DNA from: Kalaharituber pfeilii
Lineage: Eukaryota > Ascomycota > Pezizomycetes > Pezizales > Pezizaceae
Length of the DNA: 64,000 nucleotides
Direction of reading: 5' to 3'
NCBI GenBank assembly: GCA_015179045.1
Contig: WHUZ01000113.1
Location: forward strand, 62,001-126,000
A model generated the notes under the pieces. That model saw only the letters and a program-made list of their open reading frames with translations. It had not been told where the DNA came from and searched no databases. This document shows, in pieces, positions 154 through 63,871 of this stretch (within the stretch, counting starts at the first letter, position 1; every line of letters begins with the position of its first letter). The position numbers and the translations under genes were made by a program.

Positions 154-631
154 GGACAGGGGCTCGCGCATATTATGCGCTATGCAGTACTTGGCAGGGG
201 ACTAGTCCAAAATTTCATGGCAGAAGTGTCCGAAGTTTAATACATAAAGGGTATTCGGACAGCTGACATAATGAATTTGGGTCTCTTCCATTCAATATCT
301 AGTACCTAAGTATGTCCTGCCATGGCGAATAGCGGTAAGTGGGGTTTGCTATCAAAAAAAAAAAAAAAAGTACCTAAGTATCAGAGTATCAGAAAGTACT
401 AATATTCTAATAGATTTGGAGATTCTGTTCTGAAGGCCATTTCGGAGTTGCTTCAGAGGCTGTTGACATACTATTTCAGAGGCTGGCTATTCGAGAGGCT
501 GCTCTAGAGGCTGCACGAGAGGCATTGTTTTAATAGTTATCCTATATTACGCAACCACAAAGCCGCCTCGCAAATAGCCAGCCTCTAAAATAGCATGCAG
601 AACATAGCGCATAATATGCAGGAGCCTCCTG
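154..631. repeat. Diverged inverted repeat, possible MITE relic
   Basis: The left arm at about 154-187 and the right arm at about 593-631 are inverted copies sharing GCATATTATGCGCTATG and a GGACAG motif near their ends. A second inverted pair lies inside (GGCTGGCTATT at about 481 against AATAGCCAGCCTC at 574). No clear target-site duplication is visible, so a transposon origin is inference. A type B LINE tail (314-369) sits inside the structure. Confidence 0.4.
302..381 (+). mobile_element. Type B LINE-tail insertion with 12-bp TSD
   Basis: A perfect direct repeat GTACCTAAGTAT at 302-313 and 370-381 flanks a 56-nt insert (314-369). The insert is a type B tail of about 40 nt (CCTGCCATGGCGAATAGC..., GGGGTTTGCTATC) followed by about 16 A. 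This is the hallmark of target-primed reverse transcription of a 5'-truncated element. Confidence 0.85.
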
Positions 632-1256
632 TCCGAATACTTATTTTACTAGCTAGTACCACTCCACAATGAAAACTTCAATAAATATTAAGAAATCCAA
701 ATAAAGACAATCAAGGCTAGTAATTGAGAGAAAGATACTATCAAATGCGATATATTGTTGAGTAATAACATTTATTATATTGGGTATCTCTTCGACCGGT
801 TGAAACCCCTCTTTCCTGCATTAGTGTATCTTGGCGATGATGGACCATTTCTGAGAGAATATCTTTCCCACTCTTTAGATTATTTATAACGAGGGACAGG
901 ATTATCGCAAGCAACTAATCCCTTGTATTGGTGGAGCTAGATTATTTCAATCTTGAAAATACCTTCTGTATTAATTTCGCATAAGAAAATGAAATCCAAG
1001 GTAAAAAGGAGCTGACTAAACAGAAGAGGATAGGAAATGGAATTTGAACACTGCCACTCCAACTGAGAACGTGGGGTCCACAATTCGGTGCTAATTTCGT
1101 TAGCGATAGTAGACATTTCAGTTAGTCGGTGAAAATCCTTACCGAACACGGTCAAACGTTGATGAGAACAAGGATGCGGGGGAGGCTGTGTCATGATCGC
1201 CTAGAACTCAGGTGCATTAGATTCTACATTCATGAGCAGTGCCGCGTGCAATAGCC
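382..1256. other. No gene seen
   Basis: AT-rich sequence with the right arm of the inverted repeat and short AGGCTG repeats at 440-515. There is no ORF with recognisable protein character and no RNA gene was recognised. Confidence 0.5.
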
Positions 1257-1341
1257 GCTGAAGGTTTCCCTGCATAATAGGCTGGCAGCCAGTACGCGAG
1301 GGTCACGTGAGCCAAAAAAAAAAAAAAAAAAAAGCTGAAGG
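1257..1341 (+). mobile_element. Diverged type B LINE tail with 8-bp TSD
   Basis: GCTGAAGG at 1257-1264 and 1334-1341 flanks an insert ending in GGTCACGTGAGCC and about 20 A. The GGTCACGTGA end is type B, but the upstream hairpin is strongly diverged. It lies just 5' of a probable gene. Confidence 0.6.
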
Positions 1342-1521
1342 AGAGAGAGAAGCCTGTGGTACGGAGACTGCGGTAAGCTCCGCCCTCGCTTCCAAGGAAC
1401 GGGTTGACCGAAACCACGCCATCTTAGTCTCCAGACTGTCGAAGCCTTGTTCAATCGCCGTTCTCCTCCTTCGCCAAAATAACAATTATTTAGGACAGTC
1501 AAATTCAATCGGAAGCCGAAA

Positions 1522-3232
1522 ATGGGCTTTTGGACAGGTATGTTTAGCATGATGCGCATACTGGCATGCGTTTTCATGTTCACGGTCGGCGGCATCTCTG
1601 CTTCACATGCGAAATCCATCAGGGCGTTACGTCACCCACCCGAGCTCATGAGAGCAGCAGTTCTCGGAGCCGTATTTGTAGCTACCCTGCTTCCTTTTCT
1701 GCATCGTTGCATAGTGCTTTACCACAGGTGGATTTAACTAGGTGACGTGACCGCAGGGCTGCATCGGAGGTTTCTGGTCCTTGGTCGACTTGATAAAATG
1801 CCGGAACAATGGCCTACGTGTACGCCCCTATTTTCATGAGCGCGATGCCCGACCTGACATGCACCATGTCACTTATGTCTTCATCTGGGTATCCATGGAC
1901 TTGATGCTCACTGTGGGCTTCGCACTTGCGGCAGTGGAGCAATCAAAGTATCTCCCTAGGCCACTCGGCGAGTGCCAGAATCTTGCGCAGCTGAAACCCG
2001 ATGGTGGGAATGAAAAGAGCTATTTTGATTTGTTATCAGAAGTGCTGCCCAGTGACGGCAATCTAAGTGCGGAAGGCGTGTGTAGGGATTTTGTGTTTAC
2101 GTGGATGTTCAATATTACTATGGCGTAGGTTGACCTTGGTGGCGTGTTACTTTGGGCCGGTGCGGGGCCAGAGATGAAAATAGGGGATAAAGTTAGCTGA
2201 TATCTATAGTGTTCTTTCGGGGCTCGCTTGCCTTCTTGCCTCATACTGTGTCGTAGAATACTTCTTCAGCCCATCTACAGCGGCCATCTCTTATCTGCAC
2301 TACTGGACCCGCATCTCGCAGCGTCGCAGCGCACGGCGCTACCGCTCAAGGCGTGCACTAGATACCGAGAAGGCTCAGCTGGAGCTTGCGAAAAAAGGAT
2401 GTGCGCAGGCAGCTGTAGATGCTGAGCTTGGGCGACAAAAGCCAGTCAGGGTATCGAGTGGAGAAGTGTATTTGGTAGAAATGCTGGGAAGGTATGCAAT
2501 TGTAACGGCTTTGGCGAAAAGCTGCCATCATGTGGACTTTAGGAGTTTGATGAGGGTCTCACGGGTTGTGAGGGCGGCGGCACTCGGGGCGATGGGAGCA
2601 GAGATGGTGAGGAGGATAACCTGTAGCTCGGGGAGTAAGGCACACTGTTGGAGCTGTGGGGGTCAAATTTGTAAGGTAGTTGGCCTTTTTGATTATACTC
2701 CTACCCTCATGGACTCAGCTAGAAGAGACTATACAGCAACAGTTTTGCGCTGACATTTCCTTCAAAGGACTGTACCGTCTCTCGGATTCTCCACCATTCG
2801 AATGAAGTCTCCTTCCACCGCAACTGCAAACCCCACTGCGTAGGCTGCTACCGCCGCAACCGATCCTACTACCGGCTGAAGTTGCTATACTGCAACAACC
2901 AGAAGGACTACTGGTGGTGGGTCCCCCCACTCAAGTTGTGCTCCTGCGACAAGCAAGAACTTGGTGTAGTGGGCTTCTACGATGTGAGTCTTTGTGGGCT
3001 ATGTGGGCTGGAGTTTGATCAGCTGGCTTTGCTTGAGAGGCGACAGAGAAGGCGGCTGGTCATGGATTCGGACTTTGACGAGGCAGGGAACGTTGTGGAG
3101 GGTGGATGGAGATGTTTAGAGTGTAGGAAGTGTATGAAGCGGGAGGATGCGGAAAGGGTGTGGTGGACATGTGGGCGTTGCGGCAGGGATTGTGGCGCGG
3201 AGGCGGAGTTTCATGAGCAGGGCTTCAGGTAG
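1522..3232 (+). CDS. Probable multi-exon gene with Cys-rich C-terminus, function unknown
   Basis: Several open stretches on this strand look like exons of one gene, although I could not resolve every junction. The first ATG considered, at 1522, is followed after six codons by a GTATGT donor-like site. The 1590-2130 region encodes hydrophobic segments that could be membrane spans. The 2466-2680 stretch has an HCWSCGGQIC Cys motif next to a GTAAGG donor. The last exon (about 2750-3232, stop at 3230) is rich in CxxC pairs: HCVGCYRRN, KLCSCD, SLCGLCG, RCLECRKC and TCGRCGRDC, interspersed with aromatic residues. This suggests zinc-binding ribbons, but I do not recognise the family. A type B LINE tail sits about 190 bp upstream of the first ATG. 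The exon phases between about 2680 and 2760 did not join cleanly in my hands, so the gene could be decayed or the model wrong. Confidence 0.4.
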
Positions 3233-3266
3233 AGAAGCGTTTGTGCAGAGCTTTTTTATCTTTGTA

Positions 3267-3328
3267 TTTTTTTTTTTTTTTTTTAATATATACCATTACC
3301 CTTGGGCTGCCGCTAAGGGTAACATGAG
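3267..3328 (-). mobile_element. Poly-T tract with diverged LINE-tail-like hairpin
   Basis: A T tract (3267-3284) is followed by AATATATACCATTACCC and a CCCTT...AAGGG hairpin. The arrangement is that of a minus-strand LINE tail, but the sequence matches types A and B only loosely and I found no duplication. It overlaps the last few hundred bases after the Cys-rich gene. Confidence 0.35.
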
Positions 3329-3549
3329 ACGTATAGTATAAAGGAGACAATAGTACAGCTATTAACGAAACCCCAACCGGATTAATAAACCACCCAGGAC
3401 TCAAGACCGTCGTTACTAACGTAGGTTGAAGCAATCGAAAACCACACAAGACCAAAGTCAAATTAGTCCACGGTTTTCCCTTGCACTGTAGCCAGAAATG
3501 AAAATACATGAATAACTCAACACCAAGGGAATCTATCTGTTCGGGGCCA

Positions 3550-4036: not shown

Positions 4037-4133
4037 TGATGATGTTCATATTTTTTTTTTTTTTTTTATATATCAGTACTCGCATGCCGCCCTAAGGGCT
4101 ATGGCGAGGCATGGCGAGGTGATGATGTTCATA
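4037..4133 (-). mobile_element. Type A LINE tail with 14-bp TSD
   Basis: TGATGATGTTCATA at 4037-4050 and 4120-4133 flanks T(17), TATATCAGTACTCGCATGCC and the GCCCTAAGGGC hairpin with CTATGGCGAGG. This is type A in minus orientation. GCATGGCGAGG is partly repeated at the 5' end of the element. Confidence 0.85.
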
Positions 4134-8932: not shown

Positions 8933-9010
8933 GAACTAAGCCACGTCCTTGTCATACGATGGAAGCCTGTATGTAGGATTATGTTACCAAAAAAAAAAAA
9001 GAACTAAGCC
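8933..9010 (+). mobile_element. Diverged type B LINE tail with 10-bp TSD
   Basis: GAACTAAGCC at 8933-8942 and 9001-9010 flanks a 58-nt insert that ends GGATTATGTTACC and 12 A. The TTATGT end is type B and the hairpin is diverged. Confidence 0.7.
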
Positions 9011-12520: not shown

Positions 12521-13528
12521 CACTGACTGTTGGGTATTCCTTCGAAAAATGGTGATGCTGCACTAGGTGGCTGGAGGTCCTCTGGGACACACGGGCAGAT
12601 CTATTGCAATCAGAGAAGCCAATTTCTTTCTACTTGTACTTTACCGCCTTCTTGCCGCTTTCAACACCAGCGAAGGTCGTAGGTTATGAGTTTATAGTAT
12701 TTCCTTGTTGTTTCCTTTGCACTTGATCTCGTCATAGAGCTGAGGGCGGCATACGAGACGTAACGATATTAATAATAAGGAAAATAAAATCTCTACTTGT
12801 ATTCCTCATACTCTATCTTGAGTTGCTCTGGCAGGGCTGAATCAGTCAACACTGCCTCAGTGTTTTGCTGAATTGATTTTTGCGCCTACTTGAATTATAC
12901 GCACTAATTACGTTGGGATCCGAATACGTCCACGATGTCCAGAAATGCCAAACTATTTTTAACTCTTGTCCGTGCGTCCGGTGTTCTGAAACATACTCTA
13001 ATAAAGTAAGACAGAAGAGATTGGTTGCCAGAACAATTAGCCAATAGCATGAAACTCTATGTGATTTGTGTTACCTCTCTTGCATGGTAAACCCGTTTCC
13101 TCCAACGGGACAACATGTAACTTCCTCTGGTTGCCTTATTGCACTGCCTTGTCGTCTCGATCACACAAGACTGATAGAACATTAACAGTGATCGATCTGT
13201 AGCAAAACTGCAGCTGCAGCCCGGCCATCACTTCATCGAATTACAGTCTCGATTCTTATCACATTTGAACCGTGAACAATTGGTGAGCGGGAATGCCCAA
13301 TATGTTGTAGCGTGGCTTCGTCAAAACTCTGCAGGACAATTTGTTAGCTCTTACTGAGCGTTGCTGCATTTGCGGTTTTACTGGTTCGCTTTTCCAATAA
13401 AAACCGTATTTCTGTGGGAGATACGAGTACCTCTGTTACACAGATCTTACACACGGCTCCAATGACAAGCTGGGATCGGATTATTAAGGAGTCAACAGAG
13501 GCGCAGGATCAAGTGACTGAGAGCTGAC
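12521..13528. other. No gene; one type A relic
   Basis: Contains a tail-less type A relic on the plus strand at about 12728-12772 (CTCGTCATAGAGCTGAGGGC... then ATACGAGACGTAACGATATTA). No coding region was recognised in the rest. Confidence 0.45.
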
Positions 13529-13588
13529 TTTTTTTTTTTTTTTTTTCCCTACTATCAGTACTCATAAACCGCTTTGGGTTATGGCGAG
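13529..13588 (-). mobile_element. Type A LINE tail with altered stem
   Basis: T(18) is followed by a tail reading, on the minus strand, CTCGCCATAACCCAAAGCGGTT and then GAGTACTGATA. The inner stem is AACC/GGTT instead of GCCC/GGGC, so both sides changed together. No clear duplication was found, so the insertion is probably old. Confidence 0.65.
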
Positions 13589-13833
13589 ATTAAATACAAA
13601 GGAAATAATTACAAGGATGAAAATCAAAAGTGCAGTCTCCCCAATGTCACTTTCCTTCCCATCTCAGCGGCTCTACCAGGTGATCTGTTTCGTCTTCACT
13701 CGCTGTGTGCCTCCTCATTACCTCTAGGCCGCCTAGCTACTTCCTCCTCCAAACCTTGCACCTGGACCAGATGTGTGCAGATGTCTCCTCTTCCATGCCA
13801 CACATCTACACTATGGCCCATCTGCCTTCCCTG

Positions 13834-13858
13834 TCAAAAAAAAAAAAAAAAAAAAATA
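13834..13858 (+). repeat. Poly-A tract of unclear origin
   Basis: About 22 A follow CCTTCCCTGTC. ATGTCTCC occurs both 60 bp upstream and right after the tract and could be a duplication, but the sequence between does not match tail type A or B. Confidence 0.35.
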
Positions 13859-14192
13859 TGTCTCCATGCCCTCAATCCTTTTCCACCCAGCAGTCCTGGG
13901 AGCTGACTGATAACGATCCTCATTACTAAACAATGAATAATACTTTAAGAAATACAATACAACAAAAAAATTATTACATAAACTGGTGGACAATGTCTGC
14001 GATCCTAGCTGATTGAGTATATGCTTACACAAAAGCAGTGCCTGGCACTTCAGTCACGAACTCTGAGAATCAACATTAACTGTGCTCAGGTTACTGTAGG
14101 TTGTTTGAATATTCCCCATACTACTTAGTCGCCACCAGTAGCGTTGCAATGTGCGGTCTACGTATACCGACAAATGAGATATTTAGTGTAAC

Positions 14193-14495: not shown

Positions 14496-14570
14496 GATGA
14501 GGCGGGTCTCGCCATAGCCCTCAGGGCGGCACGCGAGTACTGATATTAAAAAAAAAAAGATGAGGTGGGT
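14496..14570 (+). mobile_element. Type A LINE tail with 12-bp TSD
   Basis: GATGAGGCGGGT (14496-14507) and GATGAGGTGGGT (14559-14570) flank a bare 40-nt tail, CTCGCCATAGCCC-TCA-GGGCGGCACGCGAG, plus TACTGATATT and an A run. The insert starts exactly at the first base of the hairpin. Confidence 0.85.
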
Positions 14571-14756: not shown

Positions 14757-15292
14757 GAAGCAACCCCTGCATCCGAGTTTTCCCGAAAAAAGGAATTACC
14801 TCTTACCCTGCTTTAAGGATCTTTCTGCGACAGCCCATGTTGAGGTTAGCCGCCCGCGCATGACAGGTAATGTTGATCCATTGACAAGCTTTGATCATCT
14901 GTCTTGTTTGAAATCTCGAGTGTCTCCTGCGTTCAGCGCTCACCATCTTCAACGGCTTCTGCCGTCCTATTGCCTACTGGGGAAGCTGGGCGTGGTGGTC
15001 ATATCTAAGAAGAGAGCAGATACCTGTCGCAATGGGTTGGAGAAATGGCGGTCTTTAGTGGCAAGAGTGACCATGGCATTTCCAGTAAGAATAAGGAGAG
15101 ATGTGGTAGAAGAATTTTCAAACTTAAAGTCGGTGCACTCGTTTGCAGAGTGGCAAAGAATCAGAGTGCAAGCGAGTGCTCTGAAATCCAAGGAGCAGGG
15201 GACGTTGCAGGACTGCGATAGCATCCAATTTCTGAGAGGAGAGCTGAGATGGAAGGAGGGGTTACCGCTAGTGGGTTTTTCCCAACACGTAA

Positions 15293-15379
15293 GTATAGGT
15301 GATACCCTGCCATGGCCAAGTGCTACAAGCGGGGTTATGTGATTAAAAAAAAAAAAAAAAAAAAAAAAGTATAGGTGAT
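15293..15379 (+). mobile_element. Type B LINE tail with 11-bp TSD
   Basis: GTATAGGTGAT at 15293-15303 and 15369-15379 flanks ACCCTGCCATGGCCAAGTGC, then AAGCGGGGTTATGTGATT and about 24 A. A clean type B insert. Confidence 0.88.
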
Positions 15380-15472: not shown

Positions 15473-15474
15473 TT

Positions 15475-18668: not shown

Positions 18669-20019
18669 TGTCGCTGAATTAATATTGTTGGTTTTTCGAT
18701 CGCTGGTTTTTCAGGTGGTTTAGTTGGCACGTTTTCAGGGAGCAGTTGCCTTTGAGGAGGTAGAAATACCTGCTCCCACCTTCCGCGTCCCGTCTGGGCG
18801 CACTGACCTCGCTTGCACTAATCTACGTCACCATCTGCCACAACTTAGATAGCTTCCCGCTGTCGCAGTTGCAACCACACTAGTCGCAGTTCCAACTCTA
18901 ATAACATCTTGCTAAGACGTGCCAATCCCGGCGATGCTGTCAATGCACTGCTTCATTAAGTTAGGTAGGCGCCAGCGTGTGTTGACTTCTACAGCTATGC
19001 GGTCCTGGTATCAGATTAGTTGGCAGCCGGGCGCTGAACAAGGTTCTACTAAGCGGATTTTGCGGTGTTGCGAGTAAAGTTATTTGGTTAACTTCAAAAA
19101 TTGATACTTTAACCAAGAAACATGCTTAGATTTTGCAGTGCTTTTGAGACAACTTTTGCGGCTATTTTTCTGCATCTCTACTGAGGATCTTATCTTATTC
19201 GAAAGCTTTCCTTTTGCCCAGGCTGATGCTCTGCTTGATTCTTAACACATAAATGGGCCAAATGTTACTCTTTTACTCAAGTACATAAAGCTTCAGAGGA
19301 TGATGAAGATTGGCTCAATGGAGTAACTGTTCGTGGTCACCCACATGGACAGTTCAGAGGAATAAGAGTCTCGGATAACTGAGAAGGGTCATACTAGCTT
19401 TCTCAAGTGATAAAACAAGCTTTGTGTTGAGAATAAAATTTTCTCGGATGGGGAAGATAACCAGCAAAGTTCCGTTATATTTAATCGAACTTTGCCTGCT
19501 ACACCAGCCACAAACAATTCGTCACTACAGCAACCGTGATTAATAATTACCCGAATTGCTTTACCCGGACGTTGCAAAATCCGGCCTACTTGATTTTCTC
19601 GCTCCCGATATGTCGTTTGTGTCTGAAGTATCATGACCCTGAGGTTTCTGAAGAGTCTACTTGTCATGATCCGTCATATAAGTCACTACTGTTTTCTACG
19701 GTATACATGCACGCAATATGAAAAAAAGACTTTACGCTAGCAGGTAAAAAGTTTTCAATACCAAGGAAGAATGTCTGAAGCTACTACTGTAGCCGGATTC
19801 AAATGTCCTGAGTAATGAGTATTCGTAGTACCTACTTGGTACGCACTGCAATCGGTTCAGTACTGCCAAACTACTAGTACTTCTACCCGTACCTAGGCTT
19901 TTCTACACTTAATAGTCACACCATTCACCTCCATCCAAACGGAAAAAATCTCTTGTCTCTGACATAATTCCCGAGGGGACCGTCAATTCTCGAGGGCCGC
20001 GGGCCGCTCGTGAATCTCA
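18669..20019. other. No gene seen
   Basis: Upstream flank of the minus-strand MYND gene, then AT-rich sequence. Small ORFs at 19389-19721 on both strands look spurious. Confidence 0.45.
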
Positions 20020-20113
20020 GGCTCGCGCACTTTTTCTTTCTGCCTTGGCGAACAGCTGCACGCGGGGTCATGTGATTAAAAAAAAAAAAAAAAAAAAAAA
20101 GGCTCGCGCACTT
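20020..20113 (+). mobile_element. Type B LINE tail with 13-bp TSD
   Basis: GGCTCGCGCACTT at 20020-20032 and 20101-20113 flanks a 68-nt insert: TTTCTTTCTGCC, TTGGCGAACAGCTGCACGC, GGGGTCATGTGATT and about 23 A. The target is GC-rich. Confidence 0.88.
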
Positions 20114-22653: not shown

Positions 22654-22736
22654 AGATATGCGACTCGCCCGAGCAGCTGCGCGCGGGGTCACGTGACACA
22701 CAAAAAAAAAAAAAAAAAAAAAAAGATATGCGACTC
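22654..22736 (+). mobile_element. Type B LINE tail with 12-13-bp TSD
   Basis: AGATATGCGACTC at 22654-22666 and 22724-22736 flanks CCCGAGCAGCTGCGCGC, then GGGGTCACGTGACACAC and about 22 A. The insert keeps only the second half of the type B hairpin. Confidence 0.88.
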
Positions 22737-22954
22737 TTCGATGCATTCGAACTATTTTTCCCGTTGGTGCCACAGAACCAAGCCAACGACCGATCAGACC
22801 AACTCACGACAAGACAATTCATGCACCGTAGGTCTACTAGATATGCTTCGAAATGAGCTTTTGGCATGGAAACCTCTAAACAAAGCCAAGCTCATTCCTT
22901 GGGAAACCGGTGCTGATGGCTCACCCTTGCTAAGCAACAATGCTCTTCTCGCTA

Positions 22955-23188
22955 TCCGAAGACATAGAAACCCCCCAGAGACGGAGACAGGGATACACTG
23001 GCAGAGCTGCTGGAATGGGTTGGACGATCATAGGAGTGCTTACTTCTCTCTTCTTCTCTTTTCCTCTTTTTCTTCTCCTTAGTTATTCATCTGATATGTA
23101 TCTAAGCAATACCTCGCCATAGCCTTACAGGCGGCATGCGAGTAATGATATAAAAAAAAAAAAAAAAAAAAAAAAATCCGAAGACATA
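22955..23188 (+). mobile_element. Type A LINE 3' fragment, about 210 nt, 12-bp TSD
   Basis: TCCGAAGACATA at 22955-22966 and 23177-23188 flanks a longer insert. About 140 nt of LINE 3' sequence are followed by CTCGCCATAGCCT-TAC-AGGCGGCATGCGAG, TAATGATAT and 25 A. The inner stem is GCCT/AGGC, a compensatory pair. This copy shows which sequence precedes the tail in the parent LINE. Confidence 0.88.
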
Positions 23189-24589: not shown

Positions 24590-24838
24590 GGGCCACAAAG
24601 GGCGGCCTGCATCAATTAGTCGATCAGGAAGAGAAAGCAGGATAATCGCCCTGGCAGTGATGGGAGGACTTAGAAGAGAAAGGGTGGAAGCAGGAGAAAG
24701 GGTGGAAGCAGGACATAGTAGAGGGGAACCCGGTCAAGGAATTTTTTTTTTTTTTTTTTTATTTCATTACTCGCGCCGGTCAAGGAATGATTCGCCAGCC
24801 TCGTCAGGTCCATCTGAGAGATATCTCAGGAGCTTCTA
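24590..24838 (+). mobile_element. LINE C-terminal relic (paralog of 57.2 kb copy)
   Basis: The stretch reads GGLRREKMEAG-like residues: GGLRRERVEAGERVEAG, then a Gly/Arg-rich run and RQPRQV. It aligns by eye with the relic at about 57275-57360 (GGPRREKMEAGESREQPSG then WQPRFG). A duplicated GGAGAAAGGGTGGAAGCA unit is present here. It was later interrupted by a very short type A insertion. LINE origin is inferred from the zinc knuckle next to the paralog. Confidence 0.5.
24730..24788 (-). mobile_element. Ultra-short type A insertion: 15 nt plus A-tail, 13-bp TSD
   Basis: CCGGTCAAGGAAT at 24730-24742 and 24776-24788 flanks T(18) and ATTTCATTACTCGCG. On the minus strand the insert is only CGCGAGTAATGAAAT plus A-tail, so nearly the whole hairpin is missing. 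The duplication is perfect. Confidence 0.9.
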
Positions 24839-24945: not shown

Positions 24946-25008
24946 CCCTACTTCCTGTCTTTTTTTTTTTTTTTTTTTAATATCACATTACCCCCCCTAC
25001 TTCCTGTC
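24946..25008 (-). mobile_element. Ultra-short type B insertion with 14-bp TSD
   Basis: CCCTACTTCCTGTC at 24946-24959 and 24995-25008 flanks T(19) and AATATCACATTACCCC. The element strand reads GGGGTAATGTGATATT and A-tail: about 16 nt of type B. Confidence 0.9.
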
Positions 25009-28685: not shown

Positions 28686-28694
28686 TGCGCTTTC

Positions 28695-28736
<42 letters not shown>

Positions 28737-28784
28737 CACATAACCCCGCTTATCGCTACTCGCTATGGCAGGGCGTGCTTTCTA
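28686..28784 (-). mobile_element. Type B LINE tail with 10-11-bp TSD
   Basis: GCGCTTTCTA (from about 28687) and GTGCTTTCTA (to 28784) flank a T tract of about 32 and TAATATCACATAACCCCGC, then GCTACTCGCTATGGCAGGGC. This is one of the longest homopolymer runs in the window. Confidence 0.8.
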
Positions 28785-28827
28785 AATGAGCTGAGTAGAA
28801 TTGAGGGGCCACCCCTTTCGCACACCA

Positions 28828-32735: not shown

Positions 32736-32742
32736 AGAGGAG

Positions 32743-32773
<31 letters not shown>

Positions 32774-32899
32774 CTTCAATATCATTACTCGTGGGCCGCC
32801 CTTTTTTTTTTTTTTTTTTATATATCACATGACCCCGCGTGCAGCTGTTCGCCATGGCAGGGCTGTCTGCCGCCCTGTGGGCTATGACGAGAGAGGAGT
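32736..32899 (-). mobile_element. Type A LINE tail with a type B tail inserted in its hairpin
   Basis: Outer insert: AGAGGAGT at 32736-32743 and 32892-32899 flanks a T tract, CTTCAATATCATTACTCGTG and the type A hairpin, which is split. Inner insert (32803-32868): GCCGCCCT at 32795-32802 and 32869-32876 flanks T(18), ATATATCACATGACCCCGCG, TGCAGCTGTTCGCCATGGC and AGGGCTGTCT, which is type B. Removing the inner insert and one duplication restores an intact type A tail. Confidence 0.88.
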
Positions 32900-35128
32900 T
32901 TTTCATTCTGCCCCTTCTATGACGAGAGTTGTGATGATGCCATAATTATATCCTGTCCGACAGAGATTATAGTGATCTTGATCCAGTATTTATGAAATCC
33001 CATCATGGTGTCGACAGCTTTTCTGCGATATTTCGCTCGAACCTTATATGCACAATATAAAACCTCACTTCATTCGAACAAAAAACCCATCACAGGTATC
33101 CATGTTGTAAGATACGACAGAAAGTATCCACTACTGCCTTTCGATGGACTGGAGCAGTGAGAACTGGCGGAACGAATGTACGACCAAATGCGAGTGCGAG
33201 TGCGAAAGCGCGGGTGCGAAAAAGAAGAGAAGAGAACGTTGTTCATTATATGTGCTACAGTACAGAAAGTCTATATATATGATAGCCATGAACGCCTCAC
33301 GTGCTGCCCTTATCTCCACGTGCCTTCCATGTCAAGCTTACCTTTACCCATCCCGTCGTCGTCGTCACAATGTGCTTCACCACTTTTTGCCAGAAAAGGT
33401 GACTTCAGCCACTTGGAAAATCGTAACATGTAGTACCGAAGGCACTTAGTACATGTAGTTACATGCAAATGTATGTACCTTTCGGGTACAGTATACCTTA
33501 CTTAGTAGTACTTCTATAGTAGCCGTCATCTCCTGTGAGACTGTGAACGATTGTAAGGCCCTGGGTGCGCCCATCTCCTTCGCATCAATCCCGCCCATCT
33601 GCAGTAGAGAGAAAATCGTGAGACACAGTTATGGAGGTGTCGCAATAAGAGGTGTGAGTTGAGGAATTCTGAGGCAATTTTGTAGAACTGTGAACTTCGG
33701 CATCTGGTAATCCTGCATACTATACTGATTCTACAGTATTTTGCCAGGAACTCCAAACCGGTATATCGCATTGAGCTAGATAAGTGAAAAGGAAATTGTC
33801 CTAACATTACCGAGCGCCTCAATTGTATCTCAAGTTTCAACTGGACGTTCACTGCCTATGAATAGGCAACTTCCGCATCTCAGTTTGCACCTATCGGAAA
33901 TTGACAATGGTGAAGGGTAAGTAGACTCTCGATATAAGAATGTCATCGGGCAGGGGGGCGGGGTATATATTCTTATATCTTATATGGAACTAAGTACAGG
34001 ACAGGAGATACGGAAAGGCGCGGAATATAAAATAGGTGCAAAAGAGGCTCAAGGAAGTACAGGAAACAAACATACCTAGAAGTAAAGAGAATAAGGTCTG
34101 GAAAAGTGCTAAGAGGAGTTGATGAAGGTTCTTGGGTGCCGTAACTTTACAGGTGGGGCAGTGCGGGAGTATTTCTTGTCGATAAGCTTACTCTTAGAGG
34201 TCTAGCATTCGCTCAATATAAGAATATGTGCCGGGCTATTCGTAACAGTGATTCAGTCACCACTGGCCTGGGCTCTGGGCCACTCAGTAGCACGGTTCAT
34301 AATTTTTTTTCTCTAGCACACTCGACTTTACATTCTCTTTCCCCCTCCTCCAACACTCGTCTCCCACTCTTTTGTCATTCCTTTTCCCGTTGTAATGAAG
34401 GCTCAACAGCATCCACTGTCTTGCACAGGATAGCGGTATCTAGAGCTGGCGGAACGAGGTCTCAAGGGCGGTCTCAATGGTCAAGTGTCAAGAAGGATAT
34501 CATAGGTGGCCTGTAGTCTTGTCTGCGATTTCTGGTCTGTCTGATCTATATCTACGTATCCATGTTTATCCCTACTCCAGCCTTGCCTGTCTGATGCGCG
34601 TATACAGTGCTATCTACATCAATTTATAGACCACCTTCGCCTTCCAACTAAACCTATACATCCACATCTCGCTTCTTATATAAACCCAATATATATGCGC
34701 TAGCGTTTGGGGCCGTGTTTAGCCTTATTCTTTCCATCGGTACTGTGGTTACCACCACACCGTGTTCAGCCTATAGTGCATATTTGATATCAAAGTTTGC
34801 GTTCATTGAACTGCACGCAAATTAGTCCGGTGTTAACCTAATTAGCAGTTTCAGGCCAGTTTGTAAAATGTGTACGTGAGGTCACTTAGAGTCGTATATA
34901 ATCGAGTACTGTCTTTGAAAATAGATCTTATCTGGTAGATTATATATATATTGTAGTGTCTACAAGCCATTCATCCAAAGCTCTCTCCCAAACCACTCTT
35001 GCTAGGCTATTTATTCTGGTTTCCGCCCGTGTATAAACCACCTGTACCCGTCAATAAAACTGTCAGCCATAGATCACGTGCTGCTGGGCCCACGCATCAC
35101 GTAATAAGACTACGGCCTCAACATCAAC
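32900..35128. other. No gene seen
   Basis: Contains a sequence (33294-33385) that is a paralog of the 41.24-41.4 kb region, and one weak GGCC palindrome at about 34262-34290. The longest ORF is 108 codons, with no recognisable character. Confidence 0.45.
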
Positions 35129-41293: not shown

Positions 41294-41384
41294 CCCATTT
41301 CCGTCATTACAAATGTCCTGCCATGGCGAAGAGCTGCATGCGGGGTCATGTGACAAAAAAAAAAAAAAAAAGCCCATTTCCGTC
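41294..41384 (+). mobile_element. Type B LINE tail with 12-bp TSD and an empty-site paralog
   Basis: CCCATTTCCGTC at 41294-41305 and 41373-41384 flanks ATTACAAATGTCCTGCCATG, GCGAAGAGCTGCATGC, GGGGTCATGTGAC and A(18). The surrounding sequence recurs at 33294-33385 without the insert. Confidence 0.9.
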
Positions 41385-50026: not shown

Positions 50027-53004
50027 CTATACCAAAACCACCCTGGTCCCACCCCTCTCCATCCACCCATGGGTCTCCTCCCGATCTTCCCTCTCCTCCG
50101 GGTCCTTCCACCTCCACACTGCGCCCGGCACAACCCTCCTTAGCCTCCCCAACAGCCCCTCCTTGTCCCCGCCCCTCTCCTTCTCTGTGTACCATGCCCG
50201 CCCCCTTGGCGGACACTGCAACAGCTCTACTTCCAGCTCCGGGTATCCAGTCTCTACCTGCGCCCTTCCGTTCCCTTGCTCATCCCCTCCTACAGGCGCC
50301 TGTGGTGGCATTCCGAATGACGCGGGGGAGAAGAACGAATACGGGGACATTTGGTCCGCGTTCTCCCTTCGCTCTTGATCCTGTGCATATACTGCATATT
50401 GATGAGTATAGCTCTGTGCGTGGTACTGGTGGTGGTCTAGCGGCTGCCAAGGCGGAAACTCGAGCGGGATCGGCGGAGGCACCGGTTTGCGATGGATGCC
50501 GTACGAGGTGTTCAGGCTTGATATTGTTGAGATGGTCCCCGCGCGGGTTGGGATGGTGGTGTACCCCGTGTCGGCGCTGGCGGTCGGTTCGGGGAACCTG
50601 GGTGAGTCGGGCGGTGTTGGGATCAGCGAGAGCCGGTCGGGGATGCAGAAGCTGTCGCGGAGTTGTGCGACAGGGGGACGGGGACGCGGATGGTACGTTA
50701 TAGGCTCGGAGCGGTGGATTTCGGGCTCGAGCTCCGGTTCCTCGGTGTCGATGTCGGGCACATCGCCCCATACCTGCGCGAGCTGCTCGGGCGAGAGGTA
50801 GTCTTCGTAGATTTCGGACGGTGAGGAGATGTTGCATGAGAGTGCCGGGAACTCGCTCTCCCAGTCGTATTCATCCGGGACGGCGCCAGATGGGGTTGAT
50901 ATCGCAATCCCGATATGTGCATCGTCGGAATAGTTACGGTCTACGGGAGAGATCGGGGTCGGCGGGAGATTCACCCCCACTTCGCGATTCAAGCACCCAG
51001 CGTCCCGCTCGGAATTCGTTGGAGTCGGCAGCCCCCATCCCGGCTTCAGCAGCCTCCGCGGGTTCCGCGGCGGCGGTGTCGGAGGGATCGAGGCGACCTC
51101 CGCACCCGCTTGCGCGTCCGCCTGTCCTTGCGCGTCCGCCTGTCCTTGCGCGTCCGCCTGTCCTTGCGCGTCCGCCTGTCCTTGCACGTCCGCCTGTCCT
51201 TGCGCGTCCGCCTGTCCTTCCTCCTCCTGCGGCGCACTGAGGCACCTGGTAGACAGATTGAAGCCCGTGTGCCGCACAAACCCCGCCTCCAAGTCGTAGT
51301 CACCGTCGGACGGCGACGGCGGAAGCGGCTTGTTTACGTTGAGGTTAATGCTGCTGCTTCGTGGTACTACCGACCTGTACGGCGCGGAGAGGCTCATGTT
51401 CAGGCTGACGCTCCTGCCATGCTTCTTATCACCATGATTGCCCTCTGTGCCCACCGATAATCTCGACTTATTCGTCCACCCCCGGACGGGCGTCACCGGC
51501 GCACTCGCTCCTCCGCTATGGCCAACTTGTGGTTTCCCGCCACTATCCTTCCTCTCCTCCTCCACCCAAACCGGCCTTATCTCGTCCTCTTCCTCCCCAT
51601 CCACCGGCCCAATTTCCTCAAAGTGCCACCCAAAATACACCTCATCTGCCCAGCTCCCCAAGCTCCCTTTCTTCCTCTCTAACCTCGCCAACTCCATCTT
51701 CACTCTTGACAGCTGCCTCCTTACATCCGCTGTGCCGCCCAGTGTGAACTCCGACTCATTCACTGTCATCCCTATTACACCCTCTTCTTCCCCGAGCCCA
51801 GGATCGTGCGCGTTCATGTTATCTACTTCAGCGGCTTCCACCAGTTGCAACTCCACTACCGCTGCCTCCTCCCTCACTCCATCTAGCCTGGTTCCCACAG
51901 CCTTGAGGCCCGCTAATATGGAAACTAGCCTCGCCTTCGCCTCCCTCCTTGACAATTTCTTCAGCCTTCGCCCGCCTTGCTCCATGCCTGCAATACCGGT
52001 ACCCACTGCCCCGTCCACTCCATGTCTACAAATTTGCTGCGGTGGTGGCGGGAGAACGATGCTCGGTATCCGGAGTAATAGGGAGGTATGTATTTGCCGC
52101 AGTTGGTCAAAAAGGTGGAAAAACGTGGTATCTAAATGCGCAAGATCAATTTCGAGCGAGAGCAAGGTTGTGAGGAGGTGTGATTGGATCTGCGTCAGGA
52201 GGTTGGCGGAGGGGGGTGGTGCGGTGATGTTGGTGCTTGTGCTGCTTCCTGAATCACCGGAGGAGGTGTCAGCCGTGTATTCGCTCGGAGCGCTGTAGTC
52301 TGTTGTTCTGTCCGAGTACGAGCGGGGGCGCCTCAGGGGGCGAGTGCCTTCATGAGGATTTGACATAGCGAGCAGACCCGTAAGCGCTGTGGAAAGGGAT
52401 TTTTGCTTGCGCTTTGGCGAGTTTCTCGTTCCGTCCTTCTGCTTGCTAGGTGTGATAGTAGTGGTGCTGGCGTTGATATCTTTGAAATGATTACTATCGA
52501 TACCGTCAATGTCTTGGATGGTCTCCAAATTCAGTGATTTCCTCAGTGAAAAGATGAAGGACTTGGTCCTCGACAGTCGATGAGTTGGTGGAACCTGCGG
52601 AGATTGTCAGAAAACAGGACCCGCAGTATAAACACCCATATATATACCCGAAGATATGAATACGGATGGACCTTACAAACCTGTAAACTTGACTTCCCCT
52701 TATCCCCTGGGGGTAGTAAATTCAAGTCCAAATCTGCAGGCGATATCGTAATGGTTGGCGATTCTGCTATTATAGTTCGAGGACGCCGATCAAATTGACC
52801 CTCAAGTCCACCCCAAGTTGCTGCCAAAGTCCTGGTATCCTCACTTGCAAAATCAAACGTCCCCACTGGAATCTCCAGTGGTAATAACTGCGATGCGGGA
52901 CGTCGACGTTGCAATCGCTTGGGGCGGCCTCCGGTGTATATAACATTACCATCAGTGGTAGCCCCCTTCATTATAAGCGAGTTCCGGGTCCACAATCCTG
53001 ACAT
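50027..53004 (-). CDS. Large proline/serine-rich protein with coiled-coil segment, two exons, unknown function
   Basis: Exons 53004-52681 and 52594-50027 (86-nt intron, GTTTGT...CCGCAG, phase 0) give 963 residues. The first exon starts MSGLWTRNSLIMKGA and is basic. The junction region, RLSRTKSFIFSLRKSLNLE, reads smoothly, so the second exon does not begin at its first internal Met. After a low-complexity Ser/Thr/Pro stretch, helical segments follow at about residues 215-270 (LLTTLLSLEIDLAHLDTTFF, EAKARLVSILAGLKAVGTRL, EEAAVVELQLVEAAEVD) and again near VRRQLSRVKMELARLERKK. These suggest a coiled-coil or helical bundle. At about residues 568-605 lies a GQADAQ hexapeptide array from an 18-bp minisatellite. 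The C-terminal third is Pro-rich with PP-x-PP and SPR motifs and ends RGGTRVVLV. No catalytic domain is visible; scaffold or cell-polarity roles would be guesses. No stops interrupt it. Confidence 0.75.
51105..51222 (-). repeat. 18-bp in-frame minisatellite (GQADAQ)n
   Basis: About six units of an 18-bp repeat, GCGTCCGCCTGTCCTTGC on the plus strand, with one ACGTCC variant that gives QADVQ. It encodes GQADAQ in the large minus-strand gene. The array has no frame-breaking change. Confidence 0.9.
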
Positions 53005-57099: not shown

Positions 57100-57374
57100 T
57101 GTCGCAGGGGGATCTCGCACTAGCTGCAGACTAGCAAAGGTGGAGATATGTGGAGAAGATGGATTTGTGGGGAGGATCCACGCTGCAGACGCGGAGAGGT
57201 GTGGAGAGCGCAGCACGTGATGTTCGAGTGTAGGTTTCTGGAGAGACTCAAAAGGAAAAAGGACGAGGATGGGGGTCCTAGTCACGGGAGGACCTAGAAG
57301 AGAAAAGATGGAAGCAGGAGAGAGTAGAGAGCAACCCAGTGGAAGAATGGTTTGGCAGCCTCGATTTGGGATAA
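57100..57374 (+). mobile_element. LINE C-terminal relic with decayed zinc knuckle
   Basis: Translated on the plus strand it reads a degraded knuckle (CRRGE...QHVMFECRFLERLKRKK) and then GGPRREKMEAGESREQPSG with WQPRFG. The first Cys pair is broken. The GGPRREKMEAG part aligns with the 24.6-24.8 kb relic. No A-tail of its own remains, since a type B tail is inserted just after it. The sequence upstream (56600-56700) is unassigned. Confidence 0.5.
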
Positions 57375-57454
57375 CCGCAGGGCTTTTTTTTTTTTTTTTT
57401 ATCTCACGTAACCCCGCTTGCAGCTATTCGCCATGGTAGGGCAGCCGCAGGGCT
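57375..57454 (-). mobile_element. Type B LINE tail with 10-bp TSD
   Basis: CCGCAGGGCT at 57375-57384 and 57445-57454 flanks T(17), ATCTCACGTAACCCCGCTTG and CAGCTATTCGCCATGGTAGG. Clean type B, minus orientation. Confidence 0.88.
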
Positions 57455-57588: not shown

Positions 57589-57673
57589 GTTTGGGATTGG
57601 TTTTTTTTTTTTTTTTTATATCACATGACCCCGCTTGTAGCTGTTCGCCATGGCAGGGCAGTTTGGGATTGGT
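57589..57673 (-). mobile_element. Type B LINE tail with 13-bp TSD
   Basis: GTTTGGGATTGGT at 57589-57601 and 57661-57673 flanks T(17), ATATCACATGACCCCGCTTG and TAGCTGTTCGCCATGGCAGG. The hairpin is complete, and the insert is 59 nt including the tail. Confidence 0.9.
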
Positions 57674-60585: not shown

Positions 60586-60811
60586 GTTGTACTACGAGGC
60601 TGTCAACTCGAAATAAAGCAAGTCTGCGAATGTGAATTATTAGCATAGTTTTCGAGTCGAGGGCTCCCTTCAAACATTGGAAAGATATTTGCTCAATATT
60701 GAAGGAGGAAATACCTCGAGTACAAGCAGGCAAGACAACAGCCTAGCGGTCTGCACTGTGACTTGCTTGCTGTCCTAACAGTTCACCACCAACCTGCTTA
60801 GAGAGGTATTC

Positions 60812-61122
60812 GAGGTTGTGCTATTCCGGGTCGGGAAATGCAACGAGAAATTTTCGTTCCGGGCTGCGAAGGTGTGGAGGAAGGAGAGGAGAGAGGAGAG
60901 AGGAAGGAGAGGGAAGAGGTGGAGAGATATAGGGGAGCCTCCCCGATGCAGAAACTAGAAGAACCGTCCGGAAGTTTCTGGAATCAGGTTTCTAGAAGGG
61001 GAGAGGGGGGGGGTGGAACGGGGATGTGTATATAGAACTTTCTTTGTTAAGCCTGTCTCCGGGCTTTGAGGGGTTGCCCAGGGACCCTGTCTTGGCTTAG
61101 CTCTGCAAGCGGGGTTACGTGA

Positions 61123-61166
<44 letters not shown>

Positions 61167-61176
61167 GTTGTGCTAT
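60812..61176 (+). mobile_element. Type B LINE 3' fragment of about 340 nt with 13-bp TSD
   Basis: GAGGTTGTGCTAT at 60812-60824 and 61164-61176 flanks a purine-rich 3' fragment, the type B tail CCCTGTCTTGGCTTAGCTC, GCAAGCGGGGTTACGTGATT, then T(15)A(27). A 65-codon Glu/Arg-rich ORF (60838-61035) lies in it and may be the end of a LINE protein. This is the longest type B copy besides the ORF1 unit. Confidence 0.85.
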
Positions 61177-61461
61177 CGGTCCGAAGCCACGAGGAAAGCA
61201 GGTAATCAATGTGACCTCAACAGGAAACTGGCCACGGTTATTTATCGTGCCTCAATTCACATGTCTCACACGAGATGTTGCCTCAATTCACATGTCCCAC
61301 ATGAGATGCGAATGTTCTATGAGATTAGATCAGCATGCCTAGACCAATCAACATTTGCTCGATGTGAACAGAAATGCTGTAGATTTTTTTTTACGAAACT
61401 CATTACCCTTCATCTTGTAATACCAAATGAAGTGCAGTTCCGCCTCGCCCCGCTCTGACAA

Positions 61462-61548
61462 GGCTATACAAACTCCCTACCATACGCTTGTAGCTTATAT
61501 GCGGGGTTATGTGAACCAAAAAAAAAAAAAAAAAAAAAAAGGCTATAC
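61462..61548 (+). mobile_element. Type B LINE tail with 8-bp TSD
   Basis: GGCTATAC at 61462-61469 and 61541-61548 flanks AAACTCCCTACCATACGCTT, GTAGCTTATATGC, GGGGTTATGTGAACC and A(22). The target is not A/T-rich at the 3' side. Confidence 0.8.
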
Positions 61549-61664
61549 GAGCAGTGAAACAGGGAGAAAAGAAAAAAGAAAAGGAAAGAGTGCGGTTCCA
61601 TCTGTTGAAGGCTTGAAACGTGATAACGATGCGTAAGTATTTGAAAGATTAAATGGGGAGAATG

Positions 61665-62273: not shown

Positions 62274-62538
62274 TACCAACAGAACAGCCTCAATCATTGC
62301 TCATGAATGAGGTTGCAGATGCCATCCGCTGGAAATGAGCAACCATCGATCATAAGATAAATGCCCAATCAGACCACACGTGTCCTGGCCATAATTGGAT
62401 AAAATATAAATCACAAGGCTTGTGATAACATACCCCTCGGGAATCGTTGAGCATGCATCACAACGCAGAGTGGCTAACCTAGAGCTCCTTATGGGATATT
62501 GCTGATTGCGGAAAGTAAGGAAAGAACTACTCAGTATT

Positions 62539-62617
62539 AGGCAACTTCCTTTTTTTAAAAAAAGAAACAAAATCAGTACCCGCTTGTAGCCTAATGGCAC
62601 GGCGAGCAGGCAGCTTC
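62539..62617 (-). mobile_element. Diverged type A LINE tail, T-run/A-run end, 10-bp TSD
   Basis: AGGCAACTTC (62539-62548) and AGGCAGCTTC (62608-62617) flank CTTTTTTTAAAAAAAG, AAACAAAATCAGTACCCGC and TTGTAGCCTAATGGCACGGC. On the minus strand it reads GCTCGCCGTGCCATTAGGC and GGGTACTGAT. The T(7)A(7) run is at the tail end. Confidence 0.65.
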
Positions 62618-62801
62618 GTTCAAGTTGCACAAGCCAATGTCTCGCTTTTTGTGCTTGCAATTTTGTTCACAGGTGCAGGCACCTGAACCACGAGTTCAGG
62701 AACGATATGTGTATGAACATCACTCTGCCTCATACAGTCCTGAACGTAGTTGACAACTGACGAAATTCGCAAATTCGGGAGTGAGTGGGTTCTCTTATTC
62801 G

Positions 62802-62812
62802 TCTAGTGGACG

Positions 62813-62843
<31 letters not shown>

Positions 62844-62894
62844 GCGTAACCCCGCTTGCAGCTATTCGCCATGGCAGGGCAATCTAGTGGACGT
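62802..62894 (-). mobile_element. Type B LINE tail with 12-bp TSD
   Basis: TCTAGTGGACGT at 62802-62813 and 62883-62894 flanks a T tract of about 26, AAACGCGTAACCCCGCTTG and CAGCTATTCGCCATGGCAGG. Hairpin complete. Confidence 0.9.
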
Positions 62895-63803
62895 AACAGG
62901 CATCTAAACTTTAGCTTAGTTCAGAGCTGGCATCAGTTTCAACACTAAGAATGTGAAACAATTTATATGCAAGGGCCTAATACTGGAACTAGGTTGGCGT
63001 TTGTTTAGGCCTACACCTGTTCATTACTGTACACCTCCAGAACTCTTTTATTCCTCAACTTGAGAGCTATTCAAAAGCTAAGACCAGAAAGTGCTGTGAT
63101 ACCCATATTCGCATAGGAATTTGTTGTAAATGGCAATAAATACTCTCCTAGTTCCTGTACTATTGTAAATAATACCGTTAGGGTGAGGATATCATCAGAG
63201 TAGCGTTCGGGCATGTAGCGGTGCATTACTACCATGCAGTGATGAGATGTGGATGCAACGATACCGATACATACGTTTCTATACTGGCTTTTCTTGCTCG
63301 GTTTTGATTTGTACGGCAGGGCACCCCCAGTATAGTTTCGCCCGAAGCAACGCTCATTTTGTTCGGTCCCGTTTGGGTTGGCCAAAGTAATAGTGACAAG
63401 GCCTACTATTATTTGGAAACTATGCCAGCAATTCAAGAACGAGGTGGCCAACCAAACACGCATATGATGGGTTATTCTCGCCCAGGACATGAATCCATAT
63501 CGTAATGCCATGCGGGCCAGGTAAGGCCCCACACAGGGAGACAACTATATGAGTATCAATCAGAGTTACATTCTATAAAATTCCACCAAATGACCGCTTG
63601 CTGAAACAATTTCCACTTAGGAATACGACTCCCCAGTTGCAAGTAAGGTATTGTCCATTTGCGAATTGTTCCCACGCTGCATTATATTAGCCAATTGTGA
63701 TTGTTGAGATGCACAATTCCGCTGTTTTTTGTGAGTCTTCCCCGGTTTCAACACACGACCTCGTATTGCAGGGTTCAATGACATTATCTACGTACAACTA
63801 CAT
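62895..63803. other. No supported gene
   Basis: A 157-codon minus ORF (63071-63544) has hydrophobic stretches (FQIIVGLVTITLAN) but no family likeness, and I do not support it. Confidence 0.4.
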
Positions 63804-63827
63804 GCCGCACAAGGCAAGCGATTAATG

Positions 63828-63860
<33 letters not shown>

Positions 63861-63871
63861 CCGCACAAGGC
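63804..63871 (+). mobile_element. Ultra-short type A insertion: 14 nt plus A(30), 12-bp TSD
   Basis: GCCGCACAAGGC at 63804-63815 and 63860-63871 flanks AAGCGATTAATGAT and about 30 A. Only the last 14 nt of a type A tail are present, so the insertion carries almost no element sequence. Confidence 0.9.

What the first reader, a model, noticed from the sequence alone, without database searches (positions are those of the whole stretch)
302..63871. Genome-wide scatter of minimal LINE-tail insertions from two families
About 20 inserts in 64 kb carry only the last 15-70 nt of a LINE plus an A-tail, and 7-15-bp TSDs prove each is a separate retroposition. Two tail types recur in both orientations. 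Truncation this severe as the predominant outcome is unusual; in most genomes 5'-truncated LINEs are hundreds of bases long. Seen directly: duplications and tails. Established: target-primed reverse transcription leaves TSDs and A-tails. Inference: the polymerase falls off early, or short RNAs ending in the hairpin (a SINE-like species) are the template.
Basis: partly seen in the sequence, partly recalled or inferred. Interest (0 to 1): 0.85.

Follow-up and report, generated by a model that had tools for sequence, protein, structure and literature searches.

The report
Tiny LINE copies cut at hairpins
In a desert-truffle genome, many of the sampled copies of a jumping gene consist only of its last folded hairpin and a run of A's, and their left edges fall at the foot of RNA hairpins, as if half-degraded RNA had been copied into the genome.

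Summary
In the window 19 A-tailed inserts have target-site duplications (TSDs; about 1 of 47 A-runs expected by chance); 18 of them have bodies of 14-52 nt. There are three tail types, not two, each the 3' end of a LINE in the same genome (very probably Kalaharituber pfeilii, 78 Mb). The tail is a covarying stem-loop; paralogous empty sites confirm target duplication.

The interpretation needs changing. In pattern-drawn samples 5' ends are neither smooth nor a single SINE start: long LINE copies, plus a spike at the foot of the terminal hairpin (30 of 33 TSD-defined type-A copies, two nested rows set aside; 13 of 17 type-B). A second spike lies at the foot of the next hairpin upstream (8 of 8 TSD-defined). 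Type-A copies do not run on into LINE sequence beyond the spike (LINE base at -2 in 1 of 12). Tiny copies are common for type A (31 of 80 TSD-confirmed; 47 of 80 lack the LINE word) but a minority for type B (15 of 68).

Best explanation: the templates were 3' fragments of LINE RNA whose 5' ends were already set at hairpins, probably by 5'-to-3' decay, then copied to the end. RNA ends were not measured. Not seen in the listings of nine literature searches.

The parts
301..381 (+). tiny type-A insert, body 40 nt, TSD AGTACCTAAGTAT
1257..1341 (+). tiny type-C insert, body 49 nt, TSD 8 nt
4037..4133 (-). tiny type-B insert, body 52 nt, TSD 14 nt; its first 10 nt repeat the start of the hairpin (possible template jump)
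8933..9010 (+). tiny type-C insert, body 46 nt, TSD 10 nt
13521..13908 (-). longer type-B LINE copy, 370 nt (A-tail included) between 9-nt direct repeats
14496..14570 (+). tiny type-B insert, body 40 nt, TSD 12 nt with one mismatch
15291..15379 (+). tiny type-A insert, body 41 nt, TSD 13 nt
20019..20113 (+). tiny type-A insert, body 45 nt, TSD 14 nt
22654..22736 (+). tiny type-A insert with an internal gap in the hairpin, body 35 nt, TSD 13 nt
22954..23188 (+). longer type-B LINE copy, 209 nt (A-tail included) between 13-nt TSDs
24730..24788 (-). type-B insert beginning inside the hairpin, body 15 nt, TSD 13 nt; empty paralogue at 57300-57363
24946..25008 (-). type-A insert beginning inside the hairpin, body 16 nt, TSD 14 nt
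28689..28787 (-). probable tiny type-A insert, body 45 nt, weak TSD (score 7)
32736..32903 (-). type-B copy with TSD of 12 nt (one mismatch, score 8), carrying the nested type-A insert
32795..32876 (-). tiny type-A insert nested in the type-B hairpin, body 49 nt, TSD AGGGCGGC
41294..41384 (+). tiny type-A insert, body 49 nt, TSD 12 nt; empty paralogues at 33295-33372 and in L049
46938..47059 (+). tiny type-A insert, body 41 nt, TSD 15 nt with one mismatch
57375..57454 (-). tiny type-A insert, body 44 nt, TSD 10 nt
57589..57673 (-). tiny type-A insert, body 43 nt, TSD 13 nt
60812..61176 (+). longer type-A LINE copy, 339 nt (A-tail included) between 13-nt TSDs
61460..61548 (+). tiny type-C insert, body 48 nt, TSD 10 nt
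62802..62894 (-). tiny type-A insert, body 43 nt, TSD 12 nt
63804..63871 (+). type-B insert beginning inside the hairpin, body 14 nt, TSD 12 nt

Best explanation
The tiny inserts are products of target-primed reverse transcription by LINEs whose 3' end is a stem-loop, probably a recognised one, followed by poly(A). The templates were not full LINE RNAs but 3' fragments whose 5' end lay at the foot of a hairpin: usually the terminal one, less often the next one upstream. The enzyme copied the fragment to its end, often a few bases were added, and the copy was joined to the target. The trimming is most likely 5'-to-3' RNA decay that halts at a hairpin, the terminal one probably shielded by the bound LINE protein. 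Shown: LINE origin, TSDs, empty sites, covarying hairpin, two discrete 5' ends at hairpin feet, and for type A mostly non-LINE bases beyond them. Inferred: that the end is an RNA end, and that decay makes it.
For: Type A, the first 80 places of the list: 35 have TSD score >=9; 30 of these begin within -4..+2 of the hairpin, one each at -7, -38 and -93, and two (L068, L070) are nested inside another tail. Type B, the first 48 places: 17 with TSD >=9, 13 at -2..+1, others at -11, -31, -66, -88. Swapped-flank control 47 of 2420, 3 of 2420 at the peak. TSD-free check: in the 47 of 80 type-A copies without the LINE word, base -1 is G in 43 of 47 and conservation is lost at -2 (commonest base 16 of 47), while 33 of 33 linked copies have G at -2. 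Of 12 tiny type-A copies reaching beyond -1, 1 has the LINE base at -2. Second hairpin: 20 of the first 24 places (four already held left out): 8 with TSD >=9, all at -2..+1 of its foot; the other 12, by eye, run on into LINE 3'UTR; an earlier, not random, set of 21 rows gave 8 with TSD >=9, 7 of them at -2..+2. Hairpin: 96.8% of cells paired, 21 cells changed on both sides against 6.6 in shuffles, 0 of 500. Parent LINEs: EN, RT and RNase H in one ORF for type A; type-B tail downstream of RNase H in 14 of 20 loci; RT and RNase H upstream of a type-C tail. Empty paralogues up to 98.6% identical. In print: a LINE 3' stem-loop is bound by ORF2 protein and needed (PMC4176376, abstract and two sections); in R2 transgene insertion template instability goes with more 5'-truncated inserts and a stable 5' fold is proposed as a barrier to 5'-3' exonucleases (PMC11331408, passages).
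Against: No RNA data exist here, so an RNA 5' end is not shown. In the LINE context the predicted helix extends one pair further (G at -2 with C), so the end lies within one base of the foot rather than exactly on it. The bases added beyond the foot are clearly non-LINE only for type A; at the second hairpin the base at -1 equals the LINE base (T) in 3 of 9 copies (by eye), about what chance would give, and in type B two of the three tiny copies with extra bases (L126, L138) have bases that the LINE also has there. The model does not by itself explain why LINE group A1 (GGGA before the hairpin) yields mostly long copies while A2 (GGGG) yields many tiny ones. The small hairpin between the two feet gave no ends in the TSD-defined rows. 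Of 68 type-B copies 15 are TSD-tiny. Three of 15 window inserts begin inside the hairpin, which looks like aborted copying. Of the five covariation measures, 'further pair types' does not exceed shuffles (8 against 8.6; 475 of 500) and 'pairs changed on both sides' does so less clearly (4 against 2.2; 7 of 500).
Confidence: 0.6

Rival explanations
1. The reverse transcriptase stops by itself: it is bound to the stem-loop and lets go once it has copied through it, so long RNAs give tiny copies.
For: LINE proteins bind such stem-loops (PMC4176376). A minor class beginning inside the hairpin exists (bodies 14, 15, 16 in the window).
Against: Stalling is expected at the 3' foot of a hairpin, before it is copied; the ends lie at the 5' feet after full copying. 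Of the 31 tiny type-A copies only L075 has the AGGG that a stop at the next hairpin's 3' foot would leave, and there the AGGG is part of its TSD. The same rule holds at a second hairpin. In type A, bases beyond the end are mostly not LINE bases (1 of 12). LINE groups with nearly the same hairpin differ in their share of tiny copies: A at -1 in 25 of 33 linked but 2 of 31 tiny copies.
Confidence: 0.18
2. True SINE-like genes: dedicated short RNAs starting at the hairpin foot are transcribed from master loci and mobilised by the LINE.
For: Sharp start; type-A tiny copies are enriched for certain variants (GGGGTCA 23 of 31 against 4 of 32 linked, p 7e-7); 9 of 31 tiny copies have a core not seen LINE-linked in the data in hand.
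Against: 22 of 31 tiny copies have a core also found LINE-linked, and the enriched variants are found on LINE group A2. Several tail types and a second start at another hairpin would need several independent start sites all at hairpin feet. No tRNA and no Rfam match at gathering score in the window. The usual body is about 42 nt.
Confidence: 0.13
3. Trimming happens on DNA: a long first cDNA strand is cut back from its 3' end until a DNA hairpin stops the nuclease, before joining.
For: The foot of the cDNA hairpin is the same position, so the ends alone do not tell the two apart (inference; no call).
Against: In the one tandem copy (4037-4133) an internal unit also begins at the hairpin foot, where no DNA end would have been exposed; a single case.
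Confidence: 0.07
4. Ordinary smooth 5' truncation, or chance repeats.
For: Long copies and scattered ends at -11, -31, -82, -88, -93, -114 do exist.
Against: Thirty of 33 type-A ends fall in 7 of about 150 positions searched; 8 of 8 in 4 positions at the second hairpin.
Confidence: 0.02

Closest known systems
5'-truncated LINE copies
   Same: Same 3' end as a LINE, A-tail, TSDs, no coding content.
   Different: Besides ends spread along the element there are two spikes at hairpin feet; the usual tiny copy keeps about 42 nt.
LINE-SINE partner pairs with a shared 3' tail (stringent-type LINEs; PMC4176376, introduction read)
   Same: A short element carries the 3' tail that its LINE also has.
   Different: No separate 5' head; no tRNA and no Rfam match in the window; more than one tail type behaves alike.
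Aspergillus fumigatus SINEs (PMC5063351, abstract read)
   Same: Short TSD-flanked non-coding elements in an ascomycete.
   Different: The tRNA-related ones are 140-493 bp and the 5S-related ones 259-343 bp; they derive from small RNAs and are few.
R2 insertion with unstable RNA templates (PMC11331408, passages read)
   Same: Template instability goes with 5'-truncated inserts; one or a few extra bases occur at some junctions.
   Different: An engineered assay in human cells; no record of ends at hairpin feet in a genome in the passages read.

Membership tests
5'-truncated LINE copies | 3' end identical in kind to a LINE of the same genome | tested here: met
   Type A: L039-L042, L044, L043; type B: 14 of 20 RNase H loci; type C: L199 with L050
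5'-truncated LINE copies | TSDs and A-tail | tested here: met
   with swapped-flank controls in 14 and 34
5'-truncated LINE copies | 5' ends spread along the element | tested here: not met
   Met for the long copies; not met for the spikes. Spread ends are typical of the class rather than strictly defining (recalled).
SINE | non-coding, mobilised by a LINE through a shared 3' tail | tested here: met
   short bodies and shared tail; mobilisation itself is inferred
SINE | small-RNA-derived head with internal Pol III promoter | tested here: not met
   the tiny copies hold only LINE tail; ARAGORN 0 and Rfam 0 on the window; A and B boxes were not searched for separately
SINE | own transcript | not testable with these tools
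   no RNA data
stringent-type LINE | conserved 3' stem-loop | tested here: met
   covariation on 35 type-B tails; folds
stringent-type LINE | stem-loop needed for retrotransposition | not testable with these tools
   needs a cell assay
Tad1 or I clade LINE | EN, RT and RNase H in ORF2 | tested here: met
   L039 ORF 1248 aa: PF14529/PF03372, PF00078, PF00075
Tad1 or I clade LINE | place in an RT tree | not tested
   no tree was built

The most novel reading that the evidence does not exclude
The genome keeps a record of LINE RNA decay: insert 5' ends mark where decay paused on folded RNA, so 5' truncation in these LINEs is set largely by the state of the template and not by the enzyme. The stable terminal hairpin of about 42 nt with its A-tail then behaves as an independent mobile RNA, perhaps mobilised in trans, which would make it an extremely small retroposon.
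Probability: 0.35. Interest if true: 0.85.

Novelty: new variant of a known kind. Interest (0 to 1): 0.66.

Why it matters
Why LINE copies are 5'-truncated is a long-standing question: weak enzyme, host repair, or damaged template (recalled). Here ends fall on discrete hairpin feet in many independent copies, so the template-damage answer can be tested directly by mapping RNA 5' ends. The tiny copies are also a natural deletion series: they suggest that a terminal hairpin, about ten bases and poly(A) are enough for insertion in this genome.

Tried and rejected
Smooth truncation alone: rejected for the spikes. A single SINE master: disfavoured by shared cores and several tail types. An early idea that tiny type-A copies form a lineage without LINE counterparts was dropped after searches showed LINE-linked copies with the same variants. 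An argument from the G-U pair at the foot (RNA against DNA trimming) was dropped because in the LINE context the helix extends by one pair. Rfam: no match at gathering score in the window. tRNA: none in the window. Template jumps: one clear case in the data in hand; L073 is ambiguous; L068 and L070 are nested inserts. Loci of LTR-type RT hits (part of L009-L038) served only as extra sequence in the scans. Other desert truffles were not compared: the collections described are prokaryotic, viral, phage or plasmid, and metagenome scans were capped at 0.

Rows dropped or doubtful: 3 of 38 type-B rows (one deletion, one insertion, one degenerate); L068 and L070 set aside in the type-A ends (nested). 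L086 at -66 and L222 look spurious but stay in the counts. No A-tail was found in L111, L150, L174, L184 (A) and L002, L099 (B) and in L205, L210. L093 and L095 look like segmental duplicates, so type B may be 12 of 16 independent; among the 12 long rows, L234, L236 and L242 share flanks. L192, a probable duplicate of L189, is not among the rows. Sampling followed list order (contigs C1-C9 for A and narrow B; 20 of the first 23 places, all on C1, for broad B, leaving out the narrow core; C1-C33 for the second hairpin), not at random, and needs an intact core, so copies that begin inside the hairpin are missed there.
Full report
What is in the window. The window is part of contig 17 of a 78.0 Mb genome in 360 contigs. 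The host is very probably the desert truffle Kalaharituber pfeilii (Pezizales): two proteins named K. pfeilii sit on contigs of 788,036 and 769,238 bases, which are the lengths of contigs C124 and C135 of this genome. Of 47 A-runs tested, 18 have a TSD score of 8 or more against 45 of 2162 swapped pairs; one more was found later. The 15 with score 9 or more have bodies of 14-16 nt (3) or 35-52 nt (12). Three longer inserts between direct repeats are also present.

Where they come from. Three tail types occur. A LINE with one 1248-aa ORF holding endonuclease, reverse transcriptase and RNase H (L039) ends in the type-A tail; four further copies of LINE 3' ends (L040, L041, L042, L044) and a different LINE (L043) do too. 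Type-B tails lie about 0.5 kb downstream of the RNase H match in 14 of 20 loci brought in by that domain (L047, L048, L050-L052, L055-L061, L063, L064). A type-C tail in L050 lies just downstream of an open frame with RT and RNase H domains in L199. The A2 copy in L198 has only broken frames, one with a weak RNase H match (26.4 bits, cut-off 25.8). The genome is rich in such elements: 1529 first-look RNase H candidates, of which 150 were scored. Exact-pattern counts are 1046 for A, 715 for one narrow B core and 4677 for a broad B pattern, with no match of the patterns read backwards.

The tail is a real RNA hairpin. On 35 distinct type-B tails (3 of 38 rows dropped) the named structure pairs in 96.8% of cells, with 21 cells changed on both sides against a shuffled mean of 6.6 (0 of 500 shuffles reach it); sliding the partner leaves 17-48% paired. 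Two measures are weaker: pairs with a change on both sides 4 against 2.2 (7 of 500), further pair types 8 against 8.6 (475 of 500). Folds of A and C tails are alike in form; z-scores of the six sequences folded range from -0.6 to -2.4, so the covariation is the stronger evidence.

Targets were duplicated. Joining the flanks with one TSD copy finds paralogous empty sites: L008 (empty in L044 at 98.6%, L049 and L042 at 97.9%, L039-L041 at 89%), L094 (L047, 96.9%), L106 (window 25444-25565, 93.4%), window 41294-41384 (window 33295-33372, 87.3%; L049, 80.5%), window 24730-24788 (window 57300-57363, 79.7%; L041, 75.8%), and weaker cases at 69-78%. These are paralogues in one genome, not strains.

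Where the copies begin. Eighty type-A places (the first 80 of the list) and 48 type-B places (the first 48) were read. TSD score 9 or more was found at 35 and 17. For A, 30 begin at -4..+2 of the hairpin, one each at -7, -38 and -93, and two are nested in other tails. For B, 13 begin at -2..+1, the others at -11, -31, -66 and -88; the 35 type-B rows that are not tiny have, by eye, LINE-like words just upstream. Swapped flanks reach the threshold in 47 of 2420, at the peak in 3 of 2420. A broad type-B set of 20 gave 2 tiny copies, ends at -82 and -114, one spurious match, two without A-tail, and 13 with a tail but no TSD of score 9 in reach. Without using TSDs: of 80 type-A copies, 33 carry the LINE word GGGA/GGGG before the hairpin (one of them, L075, is a tiny copy whose target ends in GGG) and 47 do not, of which 30 are TSD-confirmed tiny; in the 47 the base at -1 is G in 43 and conservation vanishes at -2, while the 33 linked ones have G at -2 in every case, as the word demands, and stay conserved to -30. 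Genome-wide 296 of 1046 carry the word next to an intact CCCTGCC.

A second spike. LINE group A2 has another hairpin about 38 nt upstream. Of 175 exact copies genome-wide, 20 of the first 24 were read (four already held left out): 8 have a TSD score of 9 or more and all 8 begin at -2..+1 of that hairpin's foot; the other 12, by eye, continue into LINE 3' UTR. An earlier set of 21 rows, chosen for other reasons, gave 8 with TSD, 7 of them at -2..+2 and one at -55.

What the ends say. Ends sit at the 5' foot of a hairpin, after it has been copied whole. A polymerase blocked by structure would stop at the 3' foot. Of 12 tiny type-A copies that extend beyond -1, only one has the LINE base at -2: the copy does not run on into LINE. 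That is what running off the end of a template, with a few added bases, would look like. At the second hairpin and in type B the few added bases agree with the LINE about as often as chance or more, so the point rests on type A. One tandem copy (4037-4133) has an inner unit that also begins at the foot. The predicted helix in the LINE context is one pair longer than the copies, so the match is to within one base.

LINE groups differ. Tiny type-A copies are enriched for GGGGTCA (23 of 31 against 4 of 32, p 7e-7) and for C or T in GCA[CT]GCGGGG (18 of 31 against 3 of 32, p 5e-5). Both variants occur on LINE-linked copies of group A2, and 22 of 31 tiny copies share a 34-nt core with a linked copy. 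Why A2 seems to give many tiny copies and A1 mostly long ones is not explained; one thought, untested, is that RNAs copied by their own freshly made protein stay long while RNAs used in trans are partly decayed.

Mechanism and rivals. The best account is insertion of 3' fragments of LINE RNA whose 5' ends were set at hairpins, probably by 5'-to-3' decay (0.6). Rivals are intrinsic stopping of the enzyme (0.18), dedicated short genes (0.13), and trimming of cDNA (0.07). In print, LINE proteins bind such 3' stem-loops and need them (PMC4176376: abstract and two sections read), and in an R2 assay template instability goes with more truncated inserts (PMC11331408: passages read). Nine literature searches ran; their listings showed no title or abstract start that reports LINE copies ending at hairpin feet; only open-licence papers are searched and most listed papers were not opened. 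Passages of PMC7550596 and PMC13295347 were also seen and do not report it.

Verdict. The sighting is sound and better than it looked: not just short, but cut at defined places. It is a variant of known LINE truncation, with a mechanism that one RNA experiment could settle.

Noticed in passing
window 32736-32903: A tiny type-A copy is nested inside the hairpin of a type-B copy, which gives their order of insertion.
   Followed up: partly
window 3267-3330: An A-tailed element with another hairpin (TTACCC...GGGTAA) that fits none of the three tail types; no TSD found.
   Followed up: no
G000 contig C1: Tails are uneven: on C1 (2.99 Mb) 17 of 19 listed type-A places and 46 of 52 listed type-B places lie in the first 561 kb, suggesting repeat-rich and repeat-poor compartments.
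   Followed up: no
window 30527-32599: Open frame of 690 aa whose relatives include proteins named heterokaryon incompatibility proteins in desert truffles and other fungi.
   Followed up: partly
window 51091-51234: 18-bp tandem repeat inside a long open frame (50027-52528).
   Followed up: no
window 39935-40010 and 40151-40226: 76-nt inverted repeats 86% complementary with 140 nt between them, beside repeated CCGGTATAGCAAGG words; perhaps a small DNA transposon.
   Followed up: no
L040 3090-3540: Very AT-rich stretch downstream of the LINE 3' end, of a kind that repeat-induced point mutation could leave (recalled).
   Followed up: no
window 24730-24788, 24946-25008, 63804-63871: Three inserts begin inside the 3' half of the hairpin (bodies 14-16 nt), a minor class that looks like aborted copying.
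   Followed up: partly
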